The notes under the pieces: model-generated
What the model was told of the DNA's origin: nothing
The model's input: the letters and a program-made list of their open reading frames with translations, nothing else
Database searches by the model: none
Program-made: the position numbers and the translations under genes
In this document: positions 8,638 through 64,000 of the stretch, piece after piece
Numbering within the stretch: the first letter of the stretch is position 1
Layout: each line of letters opens with the position of its first letter
Origin: Thermoplasmata archaeon
GTDB taxonomy: Archaea; Thermoplasmatota; Thermoplasmata; Thermoplasmatales; Thermoplasmataceae
Reading direction: 5' to 3'
NCBI GenBank assembly: GCA_021797735.1
Contig: JAJZZE010000001.1
Coordinates: forward strand, 45,053 to 109,052
DNA: 64,000 nucleotides

Positions 8638-9263
8638 GTTTATATGAATGATAATATCTATCTATATATAATTTTTTATTGATTGAATATTAATTATTTT
8701 TAATAAATAATTATGAGCATAAATCATATGTGGTTATATAATGATACCATAGCAAAATAGATTAAGTTGAGATTTTATGTGGTTTCTATCCTGATAACTA
8801 CTGAATTTATATGAACATTTTTCTTCGCCTGTGATACGGAGTTTTAACAGTGCAGAGCTATATGGCTCTCGATGTTATTCATTGCATTTATGGATTTGTT
8901 ATGTTATAATGTGCCGGTCCTTCAGAGTCGATAGCTATGTTCCTAACCTTTATTAATAGCTTAATCTATATTATTATACATCTCACAGAAATGTTAGGTC
9001 TATAATTCTAAAAGAAAGAATAGAAAATTAATTATAGAGTAATTATAATAATGGATAAATGAAAGCAGGGGCAAATACCGTATATAAAAAACATTATAAA
9101 AATCAAATTAAAAAATTATATAACAACTTGAATAAAATTTATAAATATAAGTTATCATACATATCATTTAAATTTTTAATACACGCTGAAAAATTGATAA
9201 TAAAACAGCACGCTATTTTATATTTACTTTTAAACATGTTTAATATACAAATGAGGTTTTCCT
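8638..9263. other. 626-base intergenic region
   Basis: It contains the gltB promoter (near 8664-8673), a short hairpin AGAGC/GCTCT at 8854-8869, and the esterase promoter region at its right end. A 73-codon frame at 9059-9280 is rich in Lys, Tyr and Asn, overlaps the esterase start, and looks like chance reading of AT-rich DNA. Nothing else is supported. Confidence 0.5.
9216..9257 (+). promoter_or_regulatory. Esterase promoter: TATA box, 14-bp palindrome and SD
   Basis: TTTTATATTT (9216-9225) is followed by the perfect palindrome TTAAACATGTTTAA (9230-9243) and then a GAGGT ribosome site (9253-9257) six bases before ATG 9264. The palindrome sits just downstream of the TATA box, over or next to the expected transcription start, which is where a repressor would bind. 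Confidence 0.5.
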
Positions 9264-9905
9264 ATGATCCTGGGCAATAAAGACACAGTGGTAATGATAG
9301 GTGATTCCGTTACAGACTGTAATCGTGCACGGTCTATTGGTAAATATCCGGGTGATTTGGGCAATGGATATGTTGCATATATAGATGCCCTTTTAGGTTA
9401 TTCATATCCAGAGATTGATCAGCAAATCATCAACGTAGGGGTAGCAGGTAACACAATTCGTGATTTGAAATACAGGTGGGATTCGGATGTTATGAACCAG
9501 AACCCGGACTGGGTATCAATTATGATTGGAATTAACGATGTATGGAGACACTTTGATCAACCGTTTAATGCCCCCTCACTGATATCACCGGTTGAATATA
9601 GGAGAACTTTAGATACCCTGGTTAAGATAACTATTCATCACGTTAAGGGTATTATATTAATGACCCCTTTTTATATTACCACATCTTTAGACAATGCAAT
9701 GCGTCAGGAAACACTGCACTATGCTTATATAATGGAATCAATTAGCAGGCAATATAAAACTAAACTAGTGCATACACAGGCATGGATTGATCCATTCTTG
9801 AAAAGGACACACGTTAAACGGTTATCAGATGATGGGGTGCATCCAAACCCTATTACACACATGATTTTAGCCAAAGCGTGGATTCATGAAGGAATAGAAG
9901 GATAA
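9264..9905 (+). CDS. GDSL/SGNH-family esterase, probably acquired from bacteria
   Basis: A 213-residue SGNH hydrolase. Block I is IGDSVTDCNRA (Ser about residue 16), block II GVAGNT, block III GIND, and block V DGVHPN with the catalytic Asp/His pair near 190-194. It resembles bacterial GDSL acetyl-esterases that remove acyl groups from carbohydrates. No signal peptide is visible, so action would be cytosolic. Codon use departs from its neighbours (CGT and CGG arginines, balanced third positions) and it has its own Shine-Dalgarno and palindrome, which together point to lateral acquisition. Substrate is unknown; deacetylation of imported oligosaccharides is an inference. Confidence 0.85.
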   Translation: MILGNKDTVVMIGDSVTDCNRARSIGKYPGDLGNGYVAYIDALLGYSYPEIDQQIINVGVAGNTIRDLKYRWDSDVMNQNPDWVSIMIGINDVWRHFDQPFNAPSLISPVEYRRTLDTLVKITIHHVKGIILMTPFYITTSLDNAMRQETLHYAYIMESISRQYKTKLVHTQAWIDPFLKRTHVKRLSDDGVHPNPITHMILAKAWIHEGIEG

Positions 9906-55176: not shown

Positions 55177-55623
55177 TTAAATACTATCTTTAATTTTAAG
55201 CATTGCCTCTTCTAATTCATTTATATTGCTATATGTTCCATAATTTATTGAATAATCTATCATTAGATTATTATGGTTGCTGGAAAATCTTCTCACATCT
55301 GTTTGAATGCCTATAATTATTTTACTGTACGCATATGCCATTCCCAGTTCAACACATGCCCCCTCATCAACCGTTCTGCCATCCAGAATTATTAACAAAA
55401 TTTTTGAGTTTTTTAATGCATCAACATCCCTTTTAAAAACTCTTTTTCCGGCTTCTGCATATAATTCGGGGTTCTTTAAAAGCAACTCATCCTCTCCACC
55501 ATCTCTCTGGGGTAGATATGTGGTCAATTCCATATTCTCAAGCATTTTATCGATTTTTTTATTGAACTCTATCTCCATTTCATTGAACAGTGGTGCCGAT
55601 ATATAAACGTCATAGCCTTTCAT
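55177..55623 (-). CDS. Nucleoside 2-deoxyribosyltransferase-like protein
   Basis: The 148-residue protein has the NDT fold: an N-terminal YDVYISAPLFNEMEIEFNKK and the catalytic-Glu segment DGRTVDEGACVELGMAYAYS near residue 88. It could transfer deoxyribose between bases or hydrolyse nucleotide N-glycosidic bonds, as related DNPH1-type proteins do. A nucleobase permease gene follows on the other strand, which supports a salvage role. Confidence 0.8.
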   Translation of the reverse strand: MKGYDVYISAPLFNEMEIEFNKKIDKMLENMELTTYLPQRDGGEDELLLKNPELYAEAGKRVFKRDVDALKNSKILLIILDGRTVDEGACVELGMAYAYSKIIIGIQTDVRRFSSNHNNLMIDYSINYGTYSNINELEEAMLKIKDSI

Positions 55624-55843
55624 AAGGTTATATGCTTTTATACTTAAATAATTTTCTACCTTTTAAATATACCGTATCAGTATATCTGAATTTAAATTGT
55701 TTGGGATAATTATATATACAATTATTTCAAGAATCAGCATAATATCAATTATTATTTAAATATTATGTGTTCAATATGAGATAAAATGGAATAATGCCGT
55801 GCAAAGATTTTTATTTGAATGCATATACCTGTTAATAATATAT

Positions 55844-57277
55844 ATGAAGAATGATAATTTTGACAATAAGGTTACGGAATATGGGGTAGAGGTTGTAGGA
55901 GTTAATCCAATACCTAAAAACGCGAGAAATATGTCATCAAGGAAAATATTCATTTTCTGGGCAATGGCAAGTGCATCGGCACTGACTCCACTGGTGGGTT
56001 TAGAACTTTATAATATGGGACTCATATATGCAATTATTGCCGTTTTAGTTGCATTATTAATTGGATTAATTCCTGCGGGGCTTGTATCGGAAATGGGAAG
56101 GCAGATACCTGTGCCATCACTAATTGTGTCCAGAAAAACTTATGGTTATGGGGCCTCAGGCATTTATTCATTGATTTTTACATTCCTGAATTTGGGATTT
56201 TTTGGGCTTAATGATACAGTAGGTGCAGATATTATAAGCAGCTTAACACATACCAATATAATTTTATGGTATATAATTATGGGAATCATACAGGTTGTCC
56301 TTGTACTGTTTGGGGCAAAATGGCTTGAATATTTCTTCAGATACAGTGCACCCGTACTGTTTGTGAGTTATGCCATTTTAACATATTTCCTTCTAACATC
56401 CTATAAAATTAATATATCAGGGTTACTGCATCCGGTAGGACCATTTACATGGGGTGCAGCACTTAATTTTGTTCTTGGCTTTTCAATATTAGCATGGTCT
56501 TATAAAATATCAACACAGACGAGATTTGGAGTACCATTTTCAAATACTGCTGGAAGGATAAAACGCATGGGCTATTTCTTCTCAAGCCCGATAGGTATAA
56601 TGCTACCTGTACTTTTAATGGGAATTATTGGATTACTGGGTAATAGTGTTAAACCGGGAGTTGGATGGAATATAGCGGTTTTATCATTTCCGGCATTGCA
56701 TGGCATTTTTGGCATTGTTGTATTTATAGCCGCTCTTGGTGTTTCACTGGCAATTATACATACGAACGCAATGAATTTATATCCTGCAACTGCTGATTTG
56801 CTTGCTTCTATACAGCCATTATTCAAGAAAAATGCCAGTGAAAAATTGGCACAACCTGTAACCACAGTACTTCTTGGTACAGGTGGTATAATTCTTGCAA
56901 TAGCAGGCATACTGTCATTTATATCGTCGTTTATTGACATACTTGCATCCATAATATTCCCATTTACGTTTATACTGATATTCGACTGGTTCATACATTT
57001 AAGGCATACAACTAAAATCAGTGATTATTATGTTATTCCAAAGAATATATTTAACAATATAAGGGTAGATGCCCTGATTCCGGCAATTATAGGCACTGTA
57101 ATAGCCATATTTGGCATAGGCCCCTATAGTTTTATATTCAATTACTTCCCTCAGGCACTGTTTGGGTCTCTTATCGGCTTAGTAATATATATCGGGATTT
57201 ATTATGGATTTACATCTAAGTATGTAAAGGAAAAATGGGAAAAGGCAAATGATTACAGGGAGTTTGATATGGAATAA
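55844..57277 (+). CDS. NCS1-family nucleobase permease
   Basis: The 477-residue membrane protein has about 12 helices and the NCS1 N-terminal pattern (GVEVVGVNPIPKNARN, then SSRKIFIFWAMASASALTPL). Family members import cytosine, purines, thiamine, allantoin or hydantoins with protons or sodium. I use ATG 55844; an in-frame GTG at 55799 would add 15 residues of unlike sequence. It stands next to a deoxyribosyltransferase-like gene. Confidence 0.87.
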   Translation: MKNDNFDNKVTEYGVEVVGVNPIPKNARNMSSRKIFIFWAMASASALTPLVGLELYNMGLIYAIIAVLVALLIGLIPAGLVSEMGRQIPVPSLIVSRKTYGYGASGIYSLIFTFLNLGFFGLNDTVGADIISSLTHTNIILWYIIMGIIQVVLVLFGAKWLEYFFRYSAPVLFVSYAILTYFLLTSYKINISGLLHPVGPFTWGAALNFVLGFSILAWSYKISTQTRFGVPFSNTAGRIKRMGYFFSSPIGIMLPVLLMGIIGLLGNSVKPGVGWNIAVLSFPALHGIFGIVVFIAALGVSLAIIHTNAMNLYPATADLLASIQPLFKKNASEKLAQPVTTVLLGTGGIILAIAGILSFISSFIDILASIIFPFTFILIFDWFIHLRHTTKISDYYVIPKNIFNNIRVDALIPAIIGTVIAIFGIGPYSFIFNYFPQALFGSLIGLVIYIGIYYGFTSKYVKEKWEKANDYREFDME

Positions 57278-57327: not shown

Positions 57328-58581
57328 TTATACATTAGCTATTTCATCCTTAATGTCCCCGGAATATCCATAGATTTCCTTAAATACGGTTTTTGATATT
57401 ATAATCCCGGCAAGTGAAGATAAAGAAATCACTATTGTGGAATATCCTATCCCTATTACTGCAAATAGAAATGGAAATATTGTTATTGAAAGAAATGCCG
57501 GCAACTGTAAAATAAAATTTGTAAATCCTGTAGCTTTACCTCTATAATTTATACTGGAAACAACTGCCTGTGATGTTATTATTGGCTGATTGTTCCAGTG
57601 ATTTCCCCAGACAAATAATAGCATAAATACCGGCACAAAAATAAACAATTTCATTACAAGGAATAAACCTGAAAAAACGAGTGCTATAAAAGACATTGAA
57701 AAACCAGAATAGCTTATTCTCCTTAACCCAAGCCTCGGTATTAATTTTGGTCCAAGGTAACCTGCGGGTACACCTATGGAGTATACAAGTATTATTATCA
57801 ATCTCGAGTATAGTATCCCAGATAAATGTAATAATGATATTATATACGGTATAAAAAATGCAAACGTACCGACCTCAATTCCACTGGCTATTCCACAAAT
57901 CCAGGCATATACAGTGGTATGCCATTTAATTCTGTCTTTTTTAAGTGATCTTATAAAACCGGCATATGTGTATTTTTTTCCTGAATAATCTTTCCATAAC
58001 TTTGATTCTTCCAATTTCTTAGAATATACTATCAATATTATAGCAGGCAATACTGGGAGACCCAGTGTTATAGCCCATATTAAATGATATGCAATATGCA
58101 GTACTAAAAGTATTATTATAGCAATATTAATTCCAAGTATTGCATAGCTTGCCATAAGTGTGTTTTTCGTTCCTATAACTTCCCTCTTCCTGGGTTTAAA
58201 CAGTTCCATTATATATGAATATGTATTGGAAATATCAGATCCCGTGGGTAAACCTGCAATAAATCTTGCTATTATGAAAAATACGATTGTCGGTGAAAAT
58301 ATTGAAAGTATTGAGGCAATTATAAATATAGATATATTAAGAAAAAATATTCTTTTTCTCCCAAATTTATCCGTGAGAACTCCCCCTATTAATGACCCTA
58401 TTGCAGCACCACCTGTTGTTGCACCGATAATCAGACCCGTATCTATAGTGGTAAAATGGAAATAACTGCTTAAAAAAATACTTAGCATTGTTACAGAGAA
58501 TACGTTCCATTCATCTATGAAAATGGAGATTAGCATGAAATTGGATAACAATTTTTCATCTATACCGGTATTTGTTGCCAT
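57328..58581 (-). CDS. Major facilitator superfamily transporter
   Basis: The 417-residue carrier has 12 helices and the MFS loop motif GGVLTDKFGRKRIFF between helices 2 and 3, with a second-half version (GYLGPKLIPRLGLRR). The segment after helix 4 (FIAGLPTGSDISNTYSY) resembles sugar and metabolite:H+ symporters. I choose ATG 58581 over an in-frame TTG three codons earlier. A weak CATG-centred match to the nearby TTACATGTAA motif lies about 40 bases upstream. It may belong to the sugar-acid region that follows. Confidence 0.85.
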   Translation of the reverse strand: MATNTGIDEKLLSNFMLISIFIDEWNVFSVTMLSIFLSSYFHFTTIDTGLIIGATTGGAAIGSLIGGVLTDKFGRKRIFFLNISIFIIASILSIFSPTIVFFIIARFIAGLPTGSDISNTYSYIMELFKPRKREVIGTKNTLMASYAILGINIAIIILLVLHIAYHLIWAITLGLPVLPAIILIVYSKKLEESKLWKDYSGKKYTYAGFIRSLKKDRIKWHTTVYAWICGIASGIEVGTFAFFIPYIISLLHLSGILYSRLIIILVYSIGVPAGYLGPKLIPRLGLRRISYSGFSMSFIALVFSGLFLVMKLFIFVPVFMLLFVWGNHWNNQPIITSQAVVSSINYRGKATGFTNFILQLPAFLSITIFPFLFAVIGIGYSTIVISLSSLAGIIISKTVFKEIYGYSGDIKDEIANV

Positions 58582-58784: not shown

Positions 58785-59441
58785 TCAATTATACATTTTA
58801 TTTATTATTTTATTAACAGTTTTTCTGATTTCAAGATTGAATGCCATCCTGCTGATACTGAGCTGCTCTGCCATCAGTTCATTGGATGTTCCTCTAGGGA
58901 CATTGAAAAAATTATTATCTATCGACAGTTTTAAAATGTTTCTCTGCCTCTCTGTCAGAAAAATATCGATAACTGAATGGCTTAATTCTGATATCACTAT
59001 GTTATATTTTAGTTCCGCAATACTCATGATCTTAATATCCTTAAAACCTGATAATAATTTTTTAATATTAGTATTTGCCGTGAAGATATAGTTCTCATAA
59101 TTGTTTTCAACACTGGTTTTTAAAGGAAATATAGAATTTTTAATTAATTTATCAAGGAAGGCATTTTCATAATCAACATTCATTTCAATAATTGATGAGA
59201 TATTATCCATATTATATATTTTTACATTTTTAACAGATTTGTCCATTTTTATATCATTTTTCAATGATTGCATACAGTTTTTATTGAAATGTGTGGAAAC
59301 CCTTATGGCCCTAAGCATATCGTTTGAATAGAAATAACCGATCATAATGTCCCTGTAATCCTGTGGAATCAGAGATGTCCAGCAATTATCATGTCTGATT
59401 TTAATCCTAAAAAATAATGGATTATATCTATTGTCTTCCAT
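58785..59441 (-). CDS. HTH_10 (Bat-like) transcriptional regulator
   Basis: The 218-residue protein ends with the HTH_10 domain: FLTERQRNILKLSIDNNFFN at about 160-179, then NELMAEQLSISRMAFNLEIR (recognition helix). The N-terminal 150 residues are a Bat-like sensor region without recognised cofactor site. It lies between MFS and dehydratase genes of the putative sugar-acid region, so it is a candidate regulator of the TTACATGTAA sites. Its own upstream region has four TCACTAT-type motifs. Confidence 0.85.
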   Translation of the reverse strand: MEDNRYNPLFFRIKIRHDNCWTSLIPQDYRDIMIGYFYSNDMLRAIRVSTHFNKNCMQSLKNDIKMDKSVKNVKIYNMDNISSIIEMNVDYENAFLDKLIKNSIFPLKTSVENNYENYIFTANTNIKKLLSGFKDIKIMSIAELKYNIVISELSHSVIDIFLTERQRNILKLSIDNNFFNVPRGTSNELMAEQLSISRMAFNLEIRKTVNKIINKMYN

Positions 59442-59693: not shown

Positions 59694-60800
59694 TTATTGT
59701 TTGGAATTAATATATTTTTCTATGGCATCGTCACGTACTTCTGTGCCGGCACCCCTAATCTTATTTAAATAGAAAAAGCCATTTTCTGGTTCAACCGGGT
59801 ATTTCCAGACATCAAGTAGCCATGGTACGTGCTCAACCATCATGCCGTTTTTAATTGATGCAACTAACTGTGTATGCAGTGGTTGCTGTATATTTGTATG
59901 TGGATATACATTTATGCCAAAATCATCTGCTAAATTCGCTATGTTTAACCATTCCGTTATGCCCTTAACCTTTGTTGAATCAACCTGTATGATATCAACT
60001 GCTTTATTGATTATATAATCCCGGAATTGGTATTTATTCGTTAAGGATTCTCCAAGAGCTATGGGTATATCTGTTTTTTCTCTGAGTATGCTATGTGACC
60101 TTATGTCCAGCGGGTTTAATGGCTCTTCTAACCAGTAAATATCAAATTCAGATAATCTTTTTGACATTTTAATGGCGGTTTCAAGGTCCCATTTTGTATT
60201 TGCGTCGATCATGATTCTAATATCATTGCCGATAGCTTCTCTTACAGATTTGATCCTGTAATAATCGTCATCGTTGTTTTCACTTCCAACCTTGATTTTT
60301 ATCGATTTATATCCCTGTTTTTTCAGTTCAATGGCATTTTCGGTTAATTTATGTACACTCCATGATAACCATCCGCCATGGGTATTGTATGCCTCAACTT
60401 TATCGGTTTTCGATCCTAAAACTTTATACAGTGGCAGATCTGAATATTTGCAAAAAATGTCCCATAAGGCCATGTCAACCATTGAAAATATGTAAATTTC
60501 AACACCGCTGCCCAATCTTGGGTCCCAGCCAAAGTTGTTTACTGAAGATAATTTATTATGGATTTTTAACCTCATAAATGGATCCTCGTTTACAAGCACA
60601 TTTTTTAAGTATTTATCGAACATCAACTGCGGTATATCCATTCCATATGATGTGTTCCAGTTAAAACCGTAACCCTCAATGCCATTATCCGTTGTTAACT
60701 TTAATACCAGTAAATTGATGCTATCAACAGTATACTGGGAATCTTTTATTTCACTTACCGGTATATTTAATAAATAGGTCTCTGCCGATTTAATTTTCAT
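59694..60800 (-). CDS. Enolase-superfamily sugar-acid dehydratase (MR/MLE type)
   Basis: The 368-residue enzyme belongs to the mandelate racemase/muconate lactonizing group. Key residues are the KxK in GYKSIKIKVGS (near 163), metal ligands Asp in IMIDANTKWD (near 196), Glu in WLEEPL and Glu in LGES, and a late His in YPHTNIQQP. These fit acid-sugar dehydratases such as gluconate or galactonate dehydratase, but the exact substrate is not evident. A TTACATGTAA-like site centred 42.5 bases before the start links it to the next three plus-strand genes. Confidence 0.85.
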   Translation of the reverse strand: MKIKSAETYLLNIPVSEIKDSQYTVDSINLLVLKLTTDNGIEGYGFNWNTSYGMDIPQLMFDKYLKNVLVNEDPFMRLKIHNKLSSVNNFGWDPRLGSGVEIYIFSMVDMALWDIFCKYSDLPLYKVLGSKTDKVEAYNTHGGWLSWSVHKLTENAIELKKQGYKSIKIKVGSENNDDDYYRIKSVREAIGNDIRIMIDANTKWDLETAIKMSKRLSEFDIYWLEEPLNPLDIRSHSILREKTDIPIALGESLTNKYQFRDYIINKAVDIIQVDSTKVKGITEWLNIANLADDFGINVYPHTNIQQPLHTQLVASIKNGMMVEHVPWLLDVWKYPVEPENGFFYLNKIRGAGTEVRDDAIEKYINSKQ

Positions 60801-60836
60801 AGATTGATTATGATTTAATACATATAAATCTTCTGT

Positions 60837-60848
60837 ATTACATATAAA
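60837..60848 (-). promoter_or_regulatory. TTACATGTAA-type operator, degenerate copy, dehydratase gene
   Basis: ATTACATATAAA differs from the consensus core by one base. Its centre is 42.5 bases upstream of the dehydratase start codon, exactly the spacing of the sites before 60939 and 61969. A GATTTATATG TATA-like box lies between it and the gene. Confidence 0.55.
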
Positions 60849-60890
60849 GAGGCTATGGCAATTATTTCTTATGCCTTAAATTAATATAGA

Positions 60891-60902
60891 TTTACATGTA
60901 AA
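60891..60902 (+). promoter_or_regulatory. TTACATGTAA operator, MBL-fold hydrolase gene
   Basis: TTTACATGTAAA is a perfect 12-base palindrome centred 42.5 bases before ATG 60939. The AT-rich TATA region TTATTAATTATAAA follows at 60911-60924. Confidence 0.65.
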
Positions 60903-60938
60903 ATTAATAGTTTATTAATTATAAAGCAATAAATTTTT

Positions 60939-61694
60939 ATGAATAATGGTTTCTCATTGCTGGATGTAGGCGAAAATTATCATGAAAAATCAATACTGAT
61001 TTATGGGGATTCAAACGATATTATAAAGGTACCTTTTATAAGTGTTATTTTCACTATAGAAAATAAAAATATATTATTTGATACAGGTCCAAATATAGAT
61101 GGAAACTATCCTATAATGAAAAGATTTTCAACAAAGCAGAATAAAGGCCAGAAACTTGAAGAACAGCTAAAATTAATTAATTTAAATATAACCGATATAG
61201 ACCTTGTAATAGTATCACATCTACATTTTGACCATGCTGGAGGATTAAAACTATTCAGAAAAACTGGAATACCTGTGTTAATTCAAAAAAATGAGATTAA
61301 TTATGCTTACAATCCTGATTTTTTTTATAAAGAGGTTTACTACAGGGAAGATTTTGATTATGAAGATATAAATTATGAAACTATAAATGGCGATTATGAG
61401 ATAAATGATAAACTAAAAGTGATTGCATTATACGGGCATACACCTGGAACGCAGGGGTTATTATATAAATATAATAACAATAAAATGATTTTTACAAGCG
61501 ATGCAGTATATACGATAAAAAATATAAAGCCAGAATTAAGAAGACAGGGTTTTGATTCATGTACATCAATGTGGGGTGAATCCGCAAAAAAGGTACTTTT
61601 AAAAAACAGAATAGAAAATTATGAGATATATCCAGGACATGACCCAGAATTTTATCTAAATAAAAAATTTGCACCATATATTTATAAATTATAA
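60939..61694 (+). CDS. Metallo-beta-lactamase-fold hydrolase, lactonase-like
   Basis: The 251-residue enzyme has the full zinc set: SHLHFDHAGGL (near 88-98), GHTPGTQGLL (near 166), TSDAVY (near 186) and GHDPEF (near 233). The arrangement resembles N-acyl-homoserine lactonases and 4-pyridoxolactonase. Given the adjacent sugar-acid dehydratase and sugar carrier with a shared operator, hydrolysis of a sugar lactone is a reasonable inference, not a demonstrated function. Confidence 0.85.
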   Translation: MNNGFSLLDVGENYHEKSILIYGDSNDIIKVPFISVIFTIENKNILFDTGPNIDGNYPIMKRFSTKQNKGQKLEEQLKLINLNITDIDLVIVSHLHFDHAGGLKLFRKTGIPVLIQKNEINYAYNPDFFYKEVYYREDFDYEDINYETINGDYEINDKLKVIALYGHTPGTQGLLYKYNNNKMIFTSDAVYTIKNIKPELRRQGFDSCTSMWGESAKKVLLKNRIENYEIYPGHDPEFYLNKKFAPYIYKL

Positions 61695-61920
61695 TTTTTA
61701 CAGATCCATATCTTTATTTTTCTGAATTCGTATGTTATTATAATAAATGAAATAATTGCAGGAATGTAAAGCAATAAAAATATAACTCTTAACAGGATAG
61801 TAAATATCAATATATCTTAATTATGTTCCCAGCCCTTCATATTAATTTTATAGTTATATACTATATATAATTTTCTCTGAAATTGTAGTAAAATCTTAGT
61901 TCCGGTATGTTTTAATCTAG

Positions 61921-61932
61921 ATTACATGTAAT
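61921..61932 (+). promoter_or_regulatory. TTACATGTAA operator, sugar-type MFS gene
   Basis: ATTACATGTAAT is a perfect 12-base palindrome centred 42.5 bases before ATG 61969. The TATA box TTTATATAAG (61941-61950) lies between, 19-28 bases before the start, indicating a leaderless transcript with the palindrome just upstream of the TATA box. Confidence 0.7.
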
Positions 61933-61968
61933 ATTTATAGTTTATATAAGACTTTTATTTATATATTT

Positions 61969-63294
61969 ATGGAAAAACAAAAAAATACTGTGTTTAGCGG
62001 TATGACACGCTATAAGTGGTTTCTTTTTGTAGTTGCATTGCTAGGCTGGTCAATGGCATCAATGGATTTAAACCTGTATTCAATAAGTTTGCCATTAATA
62101 ATGCAGACATATCACATATCTGTGGCATTAACAGGTATTCTAACGGCTTTAATATTCCTTGGGTCAACTGCAGTTGTTTGGATAGTAGGACCATTTCTTG
62201 ATACGTTTGGAAGAAAAACTGTCTGGCAGTACAGTCTGTTAACAATGGCAATATTCACAGGATTTACAATTTTCGCCACTACATTTGTTATTTTAGCTAT
62301 TGTAAGGGTACTCTCAGATGGGCCATCATACATAGAATTTCCAACAGGTATTACCATTGCAAATGAGGAAATGCCATCAAAACTTAGGGGTAGCTTATAT
62401 GGATGGATTCAGGCGGGCTTTCCATTGGGATATTTCCTTGCAACATTAATTGCCATAATTGTTATACCAAAATTTCCATTAACTCTAGGATGGAAAATTG
62501 CATTTTTAATTGGCGTTATACCAATAATACTTGTGGTTGTTATGCGACATTGGGTAAGAGAACCAGAAAGGTCAAAAATAGCAATAGAAGCAAAAAAATT
62601 GGTAAAGGCAGGAAAAATAGACGAGGCAAAGAAAATTACAGAAAAATACAAAATTGATTTAAATGAAGCACCACAGTTTACCTACAAACAAATGTTTTTG
62701 GACAAAAAACTAAAGAAACATACAATAATAAGCACAATTACTGAATTATCGCATGAATTTGCAACGCCTGCATTATTTTTCTTTACATCAATAGCACTGG
62801 TAGATTATAAACATTTACCTATAAGTGAAGCTTTTGTTATTATTTTGGTTGCTAATGCACTTGCCGTTTTCGGCTATGGAATAATGGGGCATGTTGGGCA
62901 GAGAATATCAAGAAAATGGGGCAGTACCCTTATAGGATTGCTTGGTGGTATTTCTGTAATATTTTTTGCATTTGCCAGAGGTACGGATGAAATTATAATA
63001 GCGACATTGTTATTTTATCCCATGGTTTTATCATGGAATGGTACATGGTGGGTATATATAGCGGAAACATATCCCACAAGGGTTAGAGGCACAGCAGATT
63101 CCTGGCAGGTTGGTCTGAACGACGCTGCGTGGGTACTTGGTTCCCTTGCTTATGGATTCGTACTTTCAAGCATTGGTTTTTTGTACACATACCTTCTAAT
63201 TGGTGCGTTTCCGGTTCTACTTGGGGCGGTACTCGTTGCTACAATGGGCATAAAGGTGAGGCCAGATGAAGAGCTTGAAAACATAATTACATAA
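61969..63294 (+). CDS. Sugar-type major facilitator transporter
   Basis: The 441-residue carrier has 12 helices and sugar-porter features: FLDTFGRKTVWQYS between helices 2 and 3, REPERSKIAIEAKKL at the central loop (with an added helical segment near 200-245), and AETYPTRVRGTADSWQVG in the second half. It is proton-linked by family analogy. A strong TTACATGTAA palindrome and TATA box precede it. Sugar acids or lactones are likely substrates by context. Confidence 0.88.
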   Translation: MEKQKNTVFSGMTRYKWFLFVVALLGWSMASMDLNLYSISLPLIMQTYHISVALTGILTALIFLGSTAVVWIVGPFLDTFGRKTVWQYSLLTMAIFTGFTIFATTFVILAIVRVLSDGPSYIEFPTGITIANEEMPSKLRGSLYGWIQAGFPLGYFLATLIAIIVIPKFPLTLGWKIAFLIGVIPIILVVVMRHWVREPERSKIAIEAKKLVKAGKIDEAKKITEKYKIDLNEAPQFTYKQMFLDKKLKKHTIISTITELSHEFATPALFFFTSIALVDYKHLPISEAFVIILVANALAVFGYGIMGHVGQRISRKWGSTLIGLLGGISVIFFAFARGTDEIIIATLLFYPMVLSWNGTWWVYIAETYPTRVRGTADSWQVGLNDAAWVLGSLAYGFVLSSIGFLYTYLLIGAFPVLLGAVLVATMGIKVRPDEELENIIT

Positions 63295-63679
63295 TTTTTA
63301 TAAATTCCCGTTTCGTCTGATGCACCCACTTAAACTTTAAACAATTTTAATAATGTTTTTTTAGTTTCTGTAATTCTTTAAAATGCTATGTTTTTTATTT
63401 ATTGACTTCCCGTTAACTATCATGGGTAGGTTAATATATTTTAGAATAGATATTCATAGAAATCCCTATAAAGAATGATTAGACCTCTTTCTTGAACAGA
63501 TTCATTCAGAAGCATAAAAAATATTAAACATTTCATTTATATTATTTTAATCTATGTAAATCAGAATAGGTAAGTGTAAATAGGTAATTTAATTTTTTTC
63601 CTTTTATACACTAAATTTATTAGTATTTATTTACATGTAATATATGCCATTTATTTATAGTTAATTTATTATTAATACT
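63295..63679. other. 385-base intergenic region
   Basis: AT-rich sequence without a credible gene. Its right end carries the TTACATGTAA site and a TTATTTATAG TATA-like stretch for the following MFS fragment. T-runs at 63356-63363 and 63594-63600 could act as terminators. Confidence 0.45.
63630..63641 (+). promoter_or_regulatory. TTACATGTAA operator, truncated MFS gene
   Basis: TTTACATGTAAT contains the perfect 10-base palindrome TTACATGTAA (63631-63640), centred 44.5 bases before ATG 63680. It shows that the truncated gene belonged to the same regulon. Confidence 0.6.
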
Positions 63680-63892
63680 ATGGATATTACAAAAACAAAT
63701 AGAGTTATAGAGAACTTGAATAAACCCACATCATTAAATAAATTTTACTGGACACTGGTATTAATGGCCACAATAGGTGGTTTTTTATACGGCTATGATC
63801 AATCGGATATAGGTTCGGTTTTAATATTTATACCGTATTATGCGCATGCAACTCCATTTGTTGTAGGTTATATCTTGACTTCGCCATTTTGA
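63680..63892 (+). pseudogene. MFS transporter, truncated after 70 codons
   Basis: The frame encodes an MFS N-terminus (FYWTLVLMATIGGFLYGYDQ, a typical sugar-porter helix 1) and then stops after VVGYILTSPF, where a full gene would have about 400 more codons. The sequence changes character there and a new frame starts 35 bases later (63927), as expected for an insertion-sequence end. The promoter with its palindrome is intact, so the stub may still be transcribed. Confidence 0.7.
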
Positions 63893-63926
63893 AAGAAAAT
63901 ATATAGATTAAAAGCCTTAATACACT

Positions 63927-64000
63927 ATGCCAAAGGAAAGTGTAACATATTCGTTGGGTGGGCTGGCACTTGTCGATCTTGTTGAGAGGGATTACAGTCT
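63927..64000 (+). CDS. Partial gene at window edge, possible transposase
   Basis: An ATG at 63927 opens a frame running off the window (MPKESVTYSLGGLALVDLVE...). It lies about 35-45 bases inside the point where the MFS gene is broken, the usual distance of a transposase start from an IS end. Only 24 codons are visible, so the family cannot be named. Confidence 0.45.
   Translation, partial: MPKESVTYSLGGLALVDLVERDYS

What the first reader, a model, noticed from the sequence alone, without database searches (positions are those of the whole stretch)
59694..63892. Candidate undescribed regulon: TTACATGTAA palindrome at fixed distance before four sugar-acid/lactone genes
Seen: TTTACATGTAAA, ATTACATGTAAT, TTTACATGTAAT and ATTACATATAAA lie before the MBL-fold hydrolase, sugar-type MFS, truncated MFS and enolase-superfamily dehydratase genes. 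Their centres are 42.5, 42.5, 44.5 and 42.5 bases from the start codons, on both strands. The site sits just upstream of the TATA region in each. Inference: one regulator (perhaps the neighbouring HTH_10 protein) controls import, lactone opening and dehydration of a sugar acid. A weak CATG-centred match also precedes the MFS gene at 58581.
Basis: partly seen in the sequence, partly recalled or inferred. Interest (0 to 1): 0.8.

Follow-up and report, generated by a model that had tools for sequence, protein, structure and literature searches.

The report
Ara-box-like sugar-acid regulon in archaeon
Five promoters of one archaeal gene cluster, which encodes predicted sugar-acid uptake and breakdown proteins, carry the same ten-base palindrome at the same distance from the TATA-like sequence; it is likely the switch through which a neighbouring regulator, which shares its DNA-binding domain with the probable arabinose activator of Sulfolobus, would turn the genes on.

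Summary
All four palindromes lie where stated. The genome holds a fifth, before an SDR/acyl-CoA-ligase/thiolase operon on contig C5, which continues the cluster behind an insertion element. All five read TTAYATGTAA, nine bases, TTTAT. This N9 form occurs five times in the 1.97 Mb genome, each time in this cluster. A sister species keeps all five. In the more distant G041 both promoters compared keep palindrome and TTTAT letter for letter, but not the spacer. So this is a real operator.

The adjacent HTH_10 gene is the likely regulator. A genome that appears to be Sulfolobus acidocaldarius suggests that XylR, the known activator acting through the Ara-box AACATGTT, is an HTH_10 protein with the same HxxCW start. 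A paralogous cluster in this genome, with its own HTH_10 gene, carries the Ara-box octamer at the same position. Best reading: an XylR/Ara-box-like regulon with a different operator. Binding, direction of control and substrate are untested. The weak match before the 58581 gene is not supported.

The parts
60824..60847 (-). Operator-TATA unit of the dehydratase promoter: TTATATGTAA-N9-TTTAT, centre 42.5 before the ATG
60892..60915 (+). Operator-TATA unit of the MBL promoter: TTACATGTAA-N9-TTTAT, centre 42.5 before the ATG
61922..61945 (+). Operator-TATA unit of the MFS1 promoter: TTACATGTAA-N9-TTTAT, centre 42.5 before the ATG
63631..63654 (+). Operator-TATA unit of the MFS2 promoter: TTACATGTAA-N9-TTTAT, centre 44.5 before the ATG
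58785..59441 (-). HTH_10 regulator (218 aa), candidate reader of the operator; no site in its own promoter
   Evidence: Pfam PF04967, 40.5 bits, cut-off 23.1; promoter read
59694..60800 (-). Enolase-superfamily (MR_MLE) dehydratase, 368 aa
60939..61694 (+). MBL-fold, lactonase-like hydrolase, 251 aa
61969..63294 (+). MFS1 transporter, 441 aa
63680..63892 (+). MFS2, first part only (sugar-porter type in G065, 496 aa); interrupted by an insertion element
63874..64000 (.). Start of the insertion element that interrupts MFS2; the contig ends in it
   Evidence: window tail and head of contig C5 compared by eye

Best explanation
The palindrome TTAYATGTAA, set exactly nine bases before TTTAT in five promoters of this cluster, is likely the operator of a local regulon, and the adjacent HTH_10 protein would likely bind it and activate the genes. 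Shown by sequence: the sites, their fixed spacing, their confinement to the cluster, and their conservation before orthologues. This would switch on uptake (MFS1, MFS2), lactone opening (MBL), dehydration (MR_MLE) and the SDR/CoA-ligase/thiolase operon together.
For: The N9 composite occurs 5 times in the genome, 5 of 5 in the cluster. Sister genome G065 keeps 5 of 5. In G041 the palindrome is 10 of 10 and TTTAT 5 of 5 before the dehydratase and MFS2, while only 3 and 2 of the 9 spacer bases are kept. HTH_10 gene adjacent to the dehydratase in G000 and G065 and 98 bases from MFS2 in G043. A paralogous dehydratase (67%) is also beside an HTH_10 gene and has AACATGTT 42.5 before its start in 3 of 3 genomes. 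The likely XylR is HTH_10 (4e-19) and aligns over most of its length with the window protein (20%, E 2e-7), and its transporter promoter has TTTAACATGTTAAA. Position upstream of the TATA region and the XylR precedent favour activation (PMC7264815, sections read).
Against: No binding or expression data. No site before the HTH_10 gene itself. The G042 HTH_10 orthologue (54%) has no close dehydratase or MFS2 orthologue in that genome. SDR operons of G060, G061 and G068, which have no close orthologue of this regulator, also carry ACATGT elements, so another protein can read similar sites. In Sulfolobales HTH_10 loci ACATGT is not enriched (5 of 170 promoters, rank 4 of 24). In G043 the site is 9 of 10 and TTTAT is not kept. 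More distant MFS2 relatives (for example 61% in this genome, C32) show no ACATGT in the 190 bases printed.
Confidence: 0.7

Rival explanations
1. The operator is real, but another regulator reads it, for example one of the other eight HTH_10 proteins of the genome; the adjacent gene serves something else.
For: Nine HTH_10 genes in the genome; genomes without a close orthologue carry ACATGT elements before SDR operons.
Against: Adjacency in G000, G065 and G043; the paralogous cluster has its own HTH_10 gene and a different operator.
Confidence: 0.17
2. The HTH_10 protein is a repressor that hinders TFB/TBP from the operator and is released by a sugar acid.
For: The operator ends only 9 bases before TTTAT, close to where BRE lies.
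Against: XylR, with the same kind of site and position, is an activator (PMC7264815).
Confidence: 0.1
3. The palindromes are chance, a general promoter element, or copies of one duplicated promoter.
For: The genome is AT-rich (window 31% GC), and the loose motif is as common as its control.
Against: N9 composite 5 of 5 in the cluster; outside G000, G065 and G041 the composite (N8-N10) is no commoner than its control (13 against 25 in 114 genomes, my sums of the table). Spacers and flanks differ between the promoters and between species, which speaks against recent copying.
Confidence: 0.03

Closest known systems
Ara-box / XylR (saci_2116) pentose regulon of Sulfolobales (PMC7264815)
   Same: CATG-centred palindrome upstream of the TATA region, before transporter and sugar-degradation genes; regulator gene near its targets; regulator very probably HTH_10 with an HxxCW start
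   Different: Operator TTAYATGTAA instead of AACATGTT; other target genes (MFS instead of CUT2 ABC transporter, lactonase-like, MR_MLE dehydratase); regulator only 20% identical; different archaeal group
Paralogous HTH_10 / dehydratase cluster on contig C35 of this genome and in G068 and G066
   Same: HTH_10 gene beside an MR_MLE dehydratase (67%); palindrome 42.5 before the dehydratase; a site before an MFS gene too
   Different: Operator AACATGTT; other partner genes; only distantly related HTH_10 protein
Deoxyribonate catabolic cluster of Klebsiella michiganensis (PMC6365646, passages seen)
   Same: CoA-synthetase, dehydrogenase, thiolase, lactonase and two MFS genes together
   Different: Here there are also an MR_MLE dehydratase and an HTH_10 regulator, an SDR-type dehydrogenase and a thiolase with a zf-ChsH2 partner; glycerate kinase was not looked for

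Membership tests
Ara-box / XylR regulon | Operator octamer AACATGTT | tested here: not met
   TTAYATGTAA in the five cluster promoters; the octamer is met in the paralogous C35 cluster
Ara-box / XylR regulon | Palindrome just upstream of the TATA region | tested here: met
   Nine bases before TTTAT, centre 42.5-44.5 before the start; 47.5 before the start at the likely saci_2122
Ara-box / XylR regulon | Regulator homologous to XylR | tested here: met
Ara-box / XylR regulon | Targets are pentose uptake and degradation genes | tested here: inconclusive
   Sugar-acid-type enzymes and MFS carriers; substrate unknown
Ara-box / XylR regulon | Expression depends on the regulator as activator | not testable with these tools
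   Needs experiments
HTH_10 (PF04967) regulators | HTH_10 domain over the curated cut-off | tested here: met
   40.5 bits against 23.1
Named MR_MLE dehydratases (talarate/galactarate, arabinonate, gluconate) | NCBIfam equivalog cut-off | tested here: not met
   Best 238.4 bits against 500; MR_MLE superfamily membership itself is met
AiiA / 4-pyridoxolactonase lactonases | NCBIfam equivalog cut-off | tested here: not met
   106 against 325 and 91.7 against 375; lactonase function is only suggested
Oxidative deoxyribonate pathway | CoA ligase, dehydrogenase, thiolase, lactonase and two MFS genes in one cluster | tested here: met
   Parts present as families; pathway parts in passages of PMC6365646
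Oxidative deoxyribonate pathway | Enzymes act on deoxyribonate | not testable with these tools
   Needs assays

The most novel reading that the evidence does not exclude
HxxCW-type HTH_10 proteins are a cross-phylum archaeal family of sugar-acid-sensing activators that read CATG-centred boxes at a fixed distance before the TATA box. After duplication each regulator and its operator flanks diverged together (AACATGTT in one cluster, TTACATGTAA in the next of the same genome), so the Ara-box is one version of a wider regulatory code.
Probability: 0.35. Interest if true: 0.75.

Novelty: new variant of a known kind. Interest (0 to 1): 0.55.

Why it matters
Operators are known for few archaeal catabolic regulators (general knowledge). 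A five-promoter regulon with strict operator-TATA spacing, a candidate regulator beside it and a paralogous regulon with a different operator in the same genome make it testable how HTH_10 proteins choose DNA and how they act on the archaeal transcription machinery. It also points to XylR being an HTH_10 protein, a family not named in the parts of its paper that I saw, which would place the Ara-box activator in a widespread family.

Tried and rejected
Loose motif scans (1-2 mismatches) carry no signal. The weak site before the 58581 gene was rejected. A CATG code for HTH_10 proteins in general was looked for in Sulfolobales loci and not seen (5 of 170 promoters, rank 4 of 24); it is kept only as the novel case for HxxCW-type proteins of sugar clusters. 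Other HTH_10 loci of this genome: in C47 and C31 the scan shows no ACATGT within 100 bases before a gene, nor in C27, C39, C11 and C3, apart from partial matches to the wider search pattern; C5 has AAAACATGTTTT 39.5 before an SDR, but inside the end of its HTH_10 gene. In one search a cupin ORF was taken by mistake for the C27 HTH_10 protein; it is not used. The first anchoring of the dehydratase promoter pair hit the neighbouring MBL site and was redone. MFS1 was not searched in relatives. Literature: no paper held both 'ara-box' and 'Thermoplasmat', and none held 4 of the 5 terms or; some searches were seen as listings (15 of 59, 10 of 23 and 10 of 18 papers) and none of the listed ones describes this regulon by title or abstract start. 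Subscription papers are mostly not in that library. The regulator's sequence profile found no close solved relative (one weak HTH match).
Full report
Observation. The four palindromes are at the stated places and distances. In gene direction they are TTATATGTAA (dehydratase) and TTACATGTAA (MBL, MFS1, MFS2). The loose motif is not enriched: 97 found against 98.4 expected with up to 2 mismatches in the window, 197 against 188 for the reversed control with up to 1 mismatch in the genome. The exact palindrome is: 10 places against 1, three of the ten within 2.8 kb here. The other seven are not comparable promoters: C12, C36, C37 and C48 lie inside open reading frames, C34 overlaps a stop codon, C22 and C45 are outside the frames listed but lack the spacing described next.

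Architecture. In each cluster promoter the palindrome is followed by exactly nine bases and TTTAT. A search for TTAYATGTAA-N(8-10)-TTTAT in 117 genomes of the order gives 7 places in this genome. The 5 with N9 all belong to the cluster; the 2 with N8 (C34:10166, C37:121687) lie within or opposite open reading frames. The fifth cluster site is C5:1451-1474, centre 43.5 before an SDR gene that heads an operon of SDR, acyl-CoA ligase, thiolase-like protein and a zf-ChsH2 protein. C5 continues the cluster: MFS2 is split by an insertion element at the end of contig C49, and its remainder, 98% identical to the sister protein, opens C5. Over the 117 genomes there are 32 matches against 29 for the reversed control. 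Twelve of the 32 are cluster promoters (G000 5, G065 5, G041 2). Without these three genomes it is 13 against 25 (my sums of the table). So the composite is no general promoter element.

Conservation. G065 (proteins 96-98% identical) has the uninterrupted cluster HTH_10, dehydratase, MBL, MFS1, MFS2, SDR, ligase with five sites, but is too close to be independent. G041 (dehydratase 75%, MFS2 84%) tells more: before both genes the palindrome is 10 of 10 and TTTAT 5 of 5, while the nine-base spacer keeps only 3 and 2 bases and the 30 bases upstream 6 and 16. G043 has TACATGTAA (9 of 10) 43.5 before MFS2, without the TTTAT match, and there the HTH_10 orthologue (54-55%) lies 98 bases from MFS2. 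Counts of orthologue promoters read that have TTAYATGTAA 42.5-44.5 before the start: dehydratase 3 of 3 (G000, G065, G041), MBL 2 of 2, MFS1 2 of 2 (relatives other than G065 not searched), MFS2 3 of 4, SDR 2 of 9. Of the other seven SDR operons, six carry an ACATGT element farther upstream (G041, G042, G043, G060, G061, G068) and G066 shows none in the stretch printed. More distant MFS2 relatives such as the 61% copy on C32 of this genome show no ACATGT in the 190 bases printed. The G041 regulator gene reads in two pieces.

Paralogous regulon. The genome has on C35 a dehydratase 67% identical, again beside an HTH_10 gene. Its promoter and those of G068 and G066 have AACATGTT 42.5 before the start (3 of 3); the MFS genes of these clusters have it at 43.5, 50.5 and 50.5. 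AACATGTT is the Sulfolobales Ara-box (PMC7264815: sections 'Identification of XylR' and Discussion read; passages). Four of the nine HTH_10 genes of the genome lie beside or within about 1.3 kb of an enolase-superfamily gene (C49, C35, C47, C5).

Link to XylR. The parts of the XylR paper that I saw do not name a protein family. In G140, a genome of the family of Metallosphaera javensis (reached from G121) whose single contig has 2,225,959 bases, the size I recall for S. acidocaldarius DSM 639, there is an HTH gene, three genes, then ATPase, permease and sugar-binding protein of an ABC transporter of the type described. That fits saci_2116 to saci_2122. TTTAACATGTTAAA lies 47.5 before the binding-protein gene. 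The HTH gene product is HTH_10 (E 4e-19), starts with a KHDACWT stretch like the window protein's RHDNCWT, and aligns with it over most of its length (20%, E 2e-7 for the single comparison). Among 46 aligned relatives E116 is invariant and H17, C20 and W21 nearly so. So XylR is very probably of this family. Against a blanket rule: Sulfolobales HTH_10 loci show no ACATGT excess (5 of 170 promoters, rank 4 of 24 palindromes; background 2 of 79), while loci of the order fetched here do (13 of 143, rank 1 of 24, next 5; background in the window 0 of 33). The latter loci were chosen by homology to this cluster or its HTH_10 genes and include related genomes (not G065 or the window's own sites), so the number is descriptive. 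M. javensis has an HTH_10 gene beside such an ABC transporter without AACATGTT before the binding-protein gene.

Function of the targets. Dehydratase: MR_MLE, best solved relatives 3tj4 and L-talarate/galactarate dehydratase, equivalog cut-offs not reached. MBL: AiiA/4-pyridoxolactonase-like, cut-offs not reached. MFS1: nearest to the aromatic-acid/H+ symport model, below its cut-off; MFS2: sugar-porter model, 236.5 against 237.8. Lactonase, dehydrogenase, CoA ligase, thiolase and two MFS genes are the parts reported for deoxyribonate use in Klebsiella michiganensis (PMC6365646, passages seen). The window has a nucleoside 2-deoxyribosyltransferase and a nucleobase permease upstream (55177-57277), and in G042, G061 and G068 the SDR operon lies next to a deoxyribosyltransferase (G042) or nucleoside hydrolase gene. 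A nucleoside-derived sugar acid is a guess worth testing.

Mechanism. The operator ends nine bases before TTTAT, about where BRE would lie, and the short distance from TTTAT to the ATG suggests short or absent leaders (inferred). An HTH_10 dimer there could recruit TBP/TFB; activation is preferred because XylR is an activator. My odds: operator real about 0.95; adjacent HTH_10 reads it about 0.8; activator if so about 0.9; overall 0.7.

Noticed in passing
L114:1-11313 (contig C35 of this genome), L120, L121: A paralogous cluster with its own HTH_10 gene and the Ara-box octamer AACATGTT before its dehydratase and MFS genes.
   Followed up: partly
window 63868-64000 and start of L173: An insertion element with CTTGACTTCGCC inverted ends and a 6-base target repeat (TTATAT) splits MFS2; the sister genome G065 has the gene uninterrupted.
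   Followed up: partly
window 9227-9246: A 14-base palindrome TTAAACATGTTTAA, containing the Ara-box octamer, with its centre about 27.5 bases before a GDSL-like hydrolase gene at 9264.
   Followed up: no
L173:1499-5243: SDR, acyl-CoA ligase, thiolase-like and zf-ChsH2 operon; in relatives next to nucleoside-degradation genes, so perhaps an oxidative deoxyribose or nucleoside pathway.
   Followed up: partly
window 55177-57277: Nucleoside 2-deoxyribosyltransferase and nucleobase permease genes upstream of the cluster.
   Followed up: partly
L118:18880-19000 and L185:5960-6080: A conserved small reading frame (ending ...SYCGDFIV) in the long leader before the SDR gene of G042 and G043, overlapping the SDR start: a possible leader peptide.
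   Followed up: no
window 59352-59441 (minus strand) and alignment A1: H17, C20, W21 (nearly invariant) and E116 (invariant) in the N-terminal part of 46 HTH_10 proteins: a possible ligand or metal site.
   Followed up: no
L220:13359-17618: Metallosphaera javensis: HTH_10 gene beside an ABC sugar transporter like that of S. acidocaldarius but without an Ara-box before the binding-protein gene.
   Followed up: partly
L117:4790-5444: The G041 HTH_10 orthologue reads in two pieces (residues 2-185 and 171-216): frameshift or assembly error.
   Followed up: no
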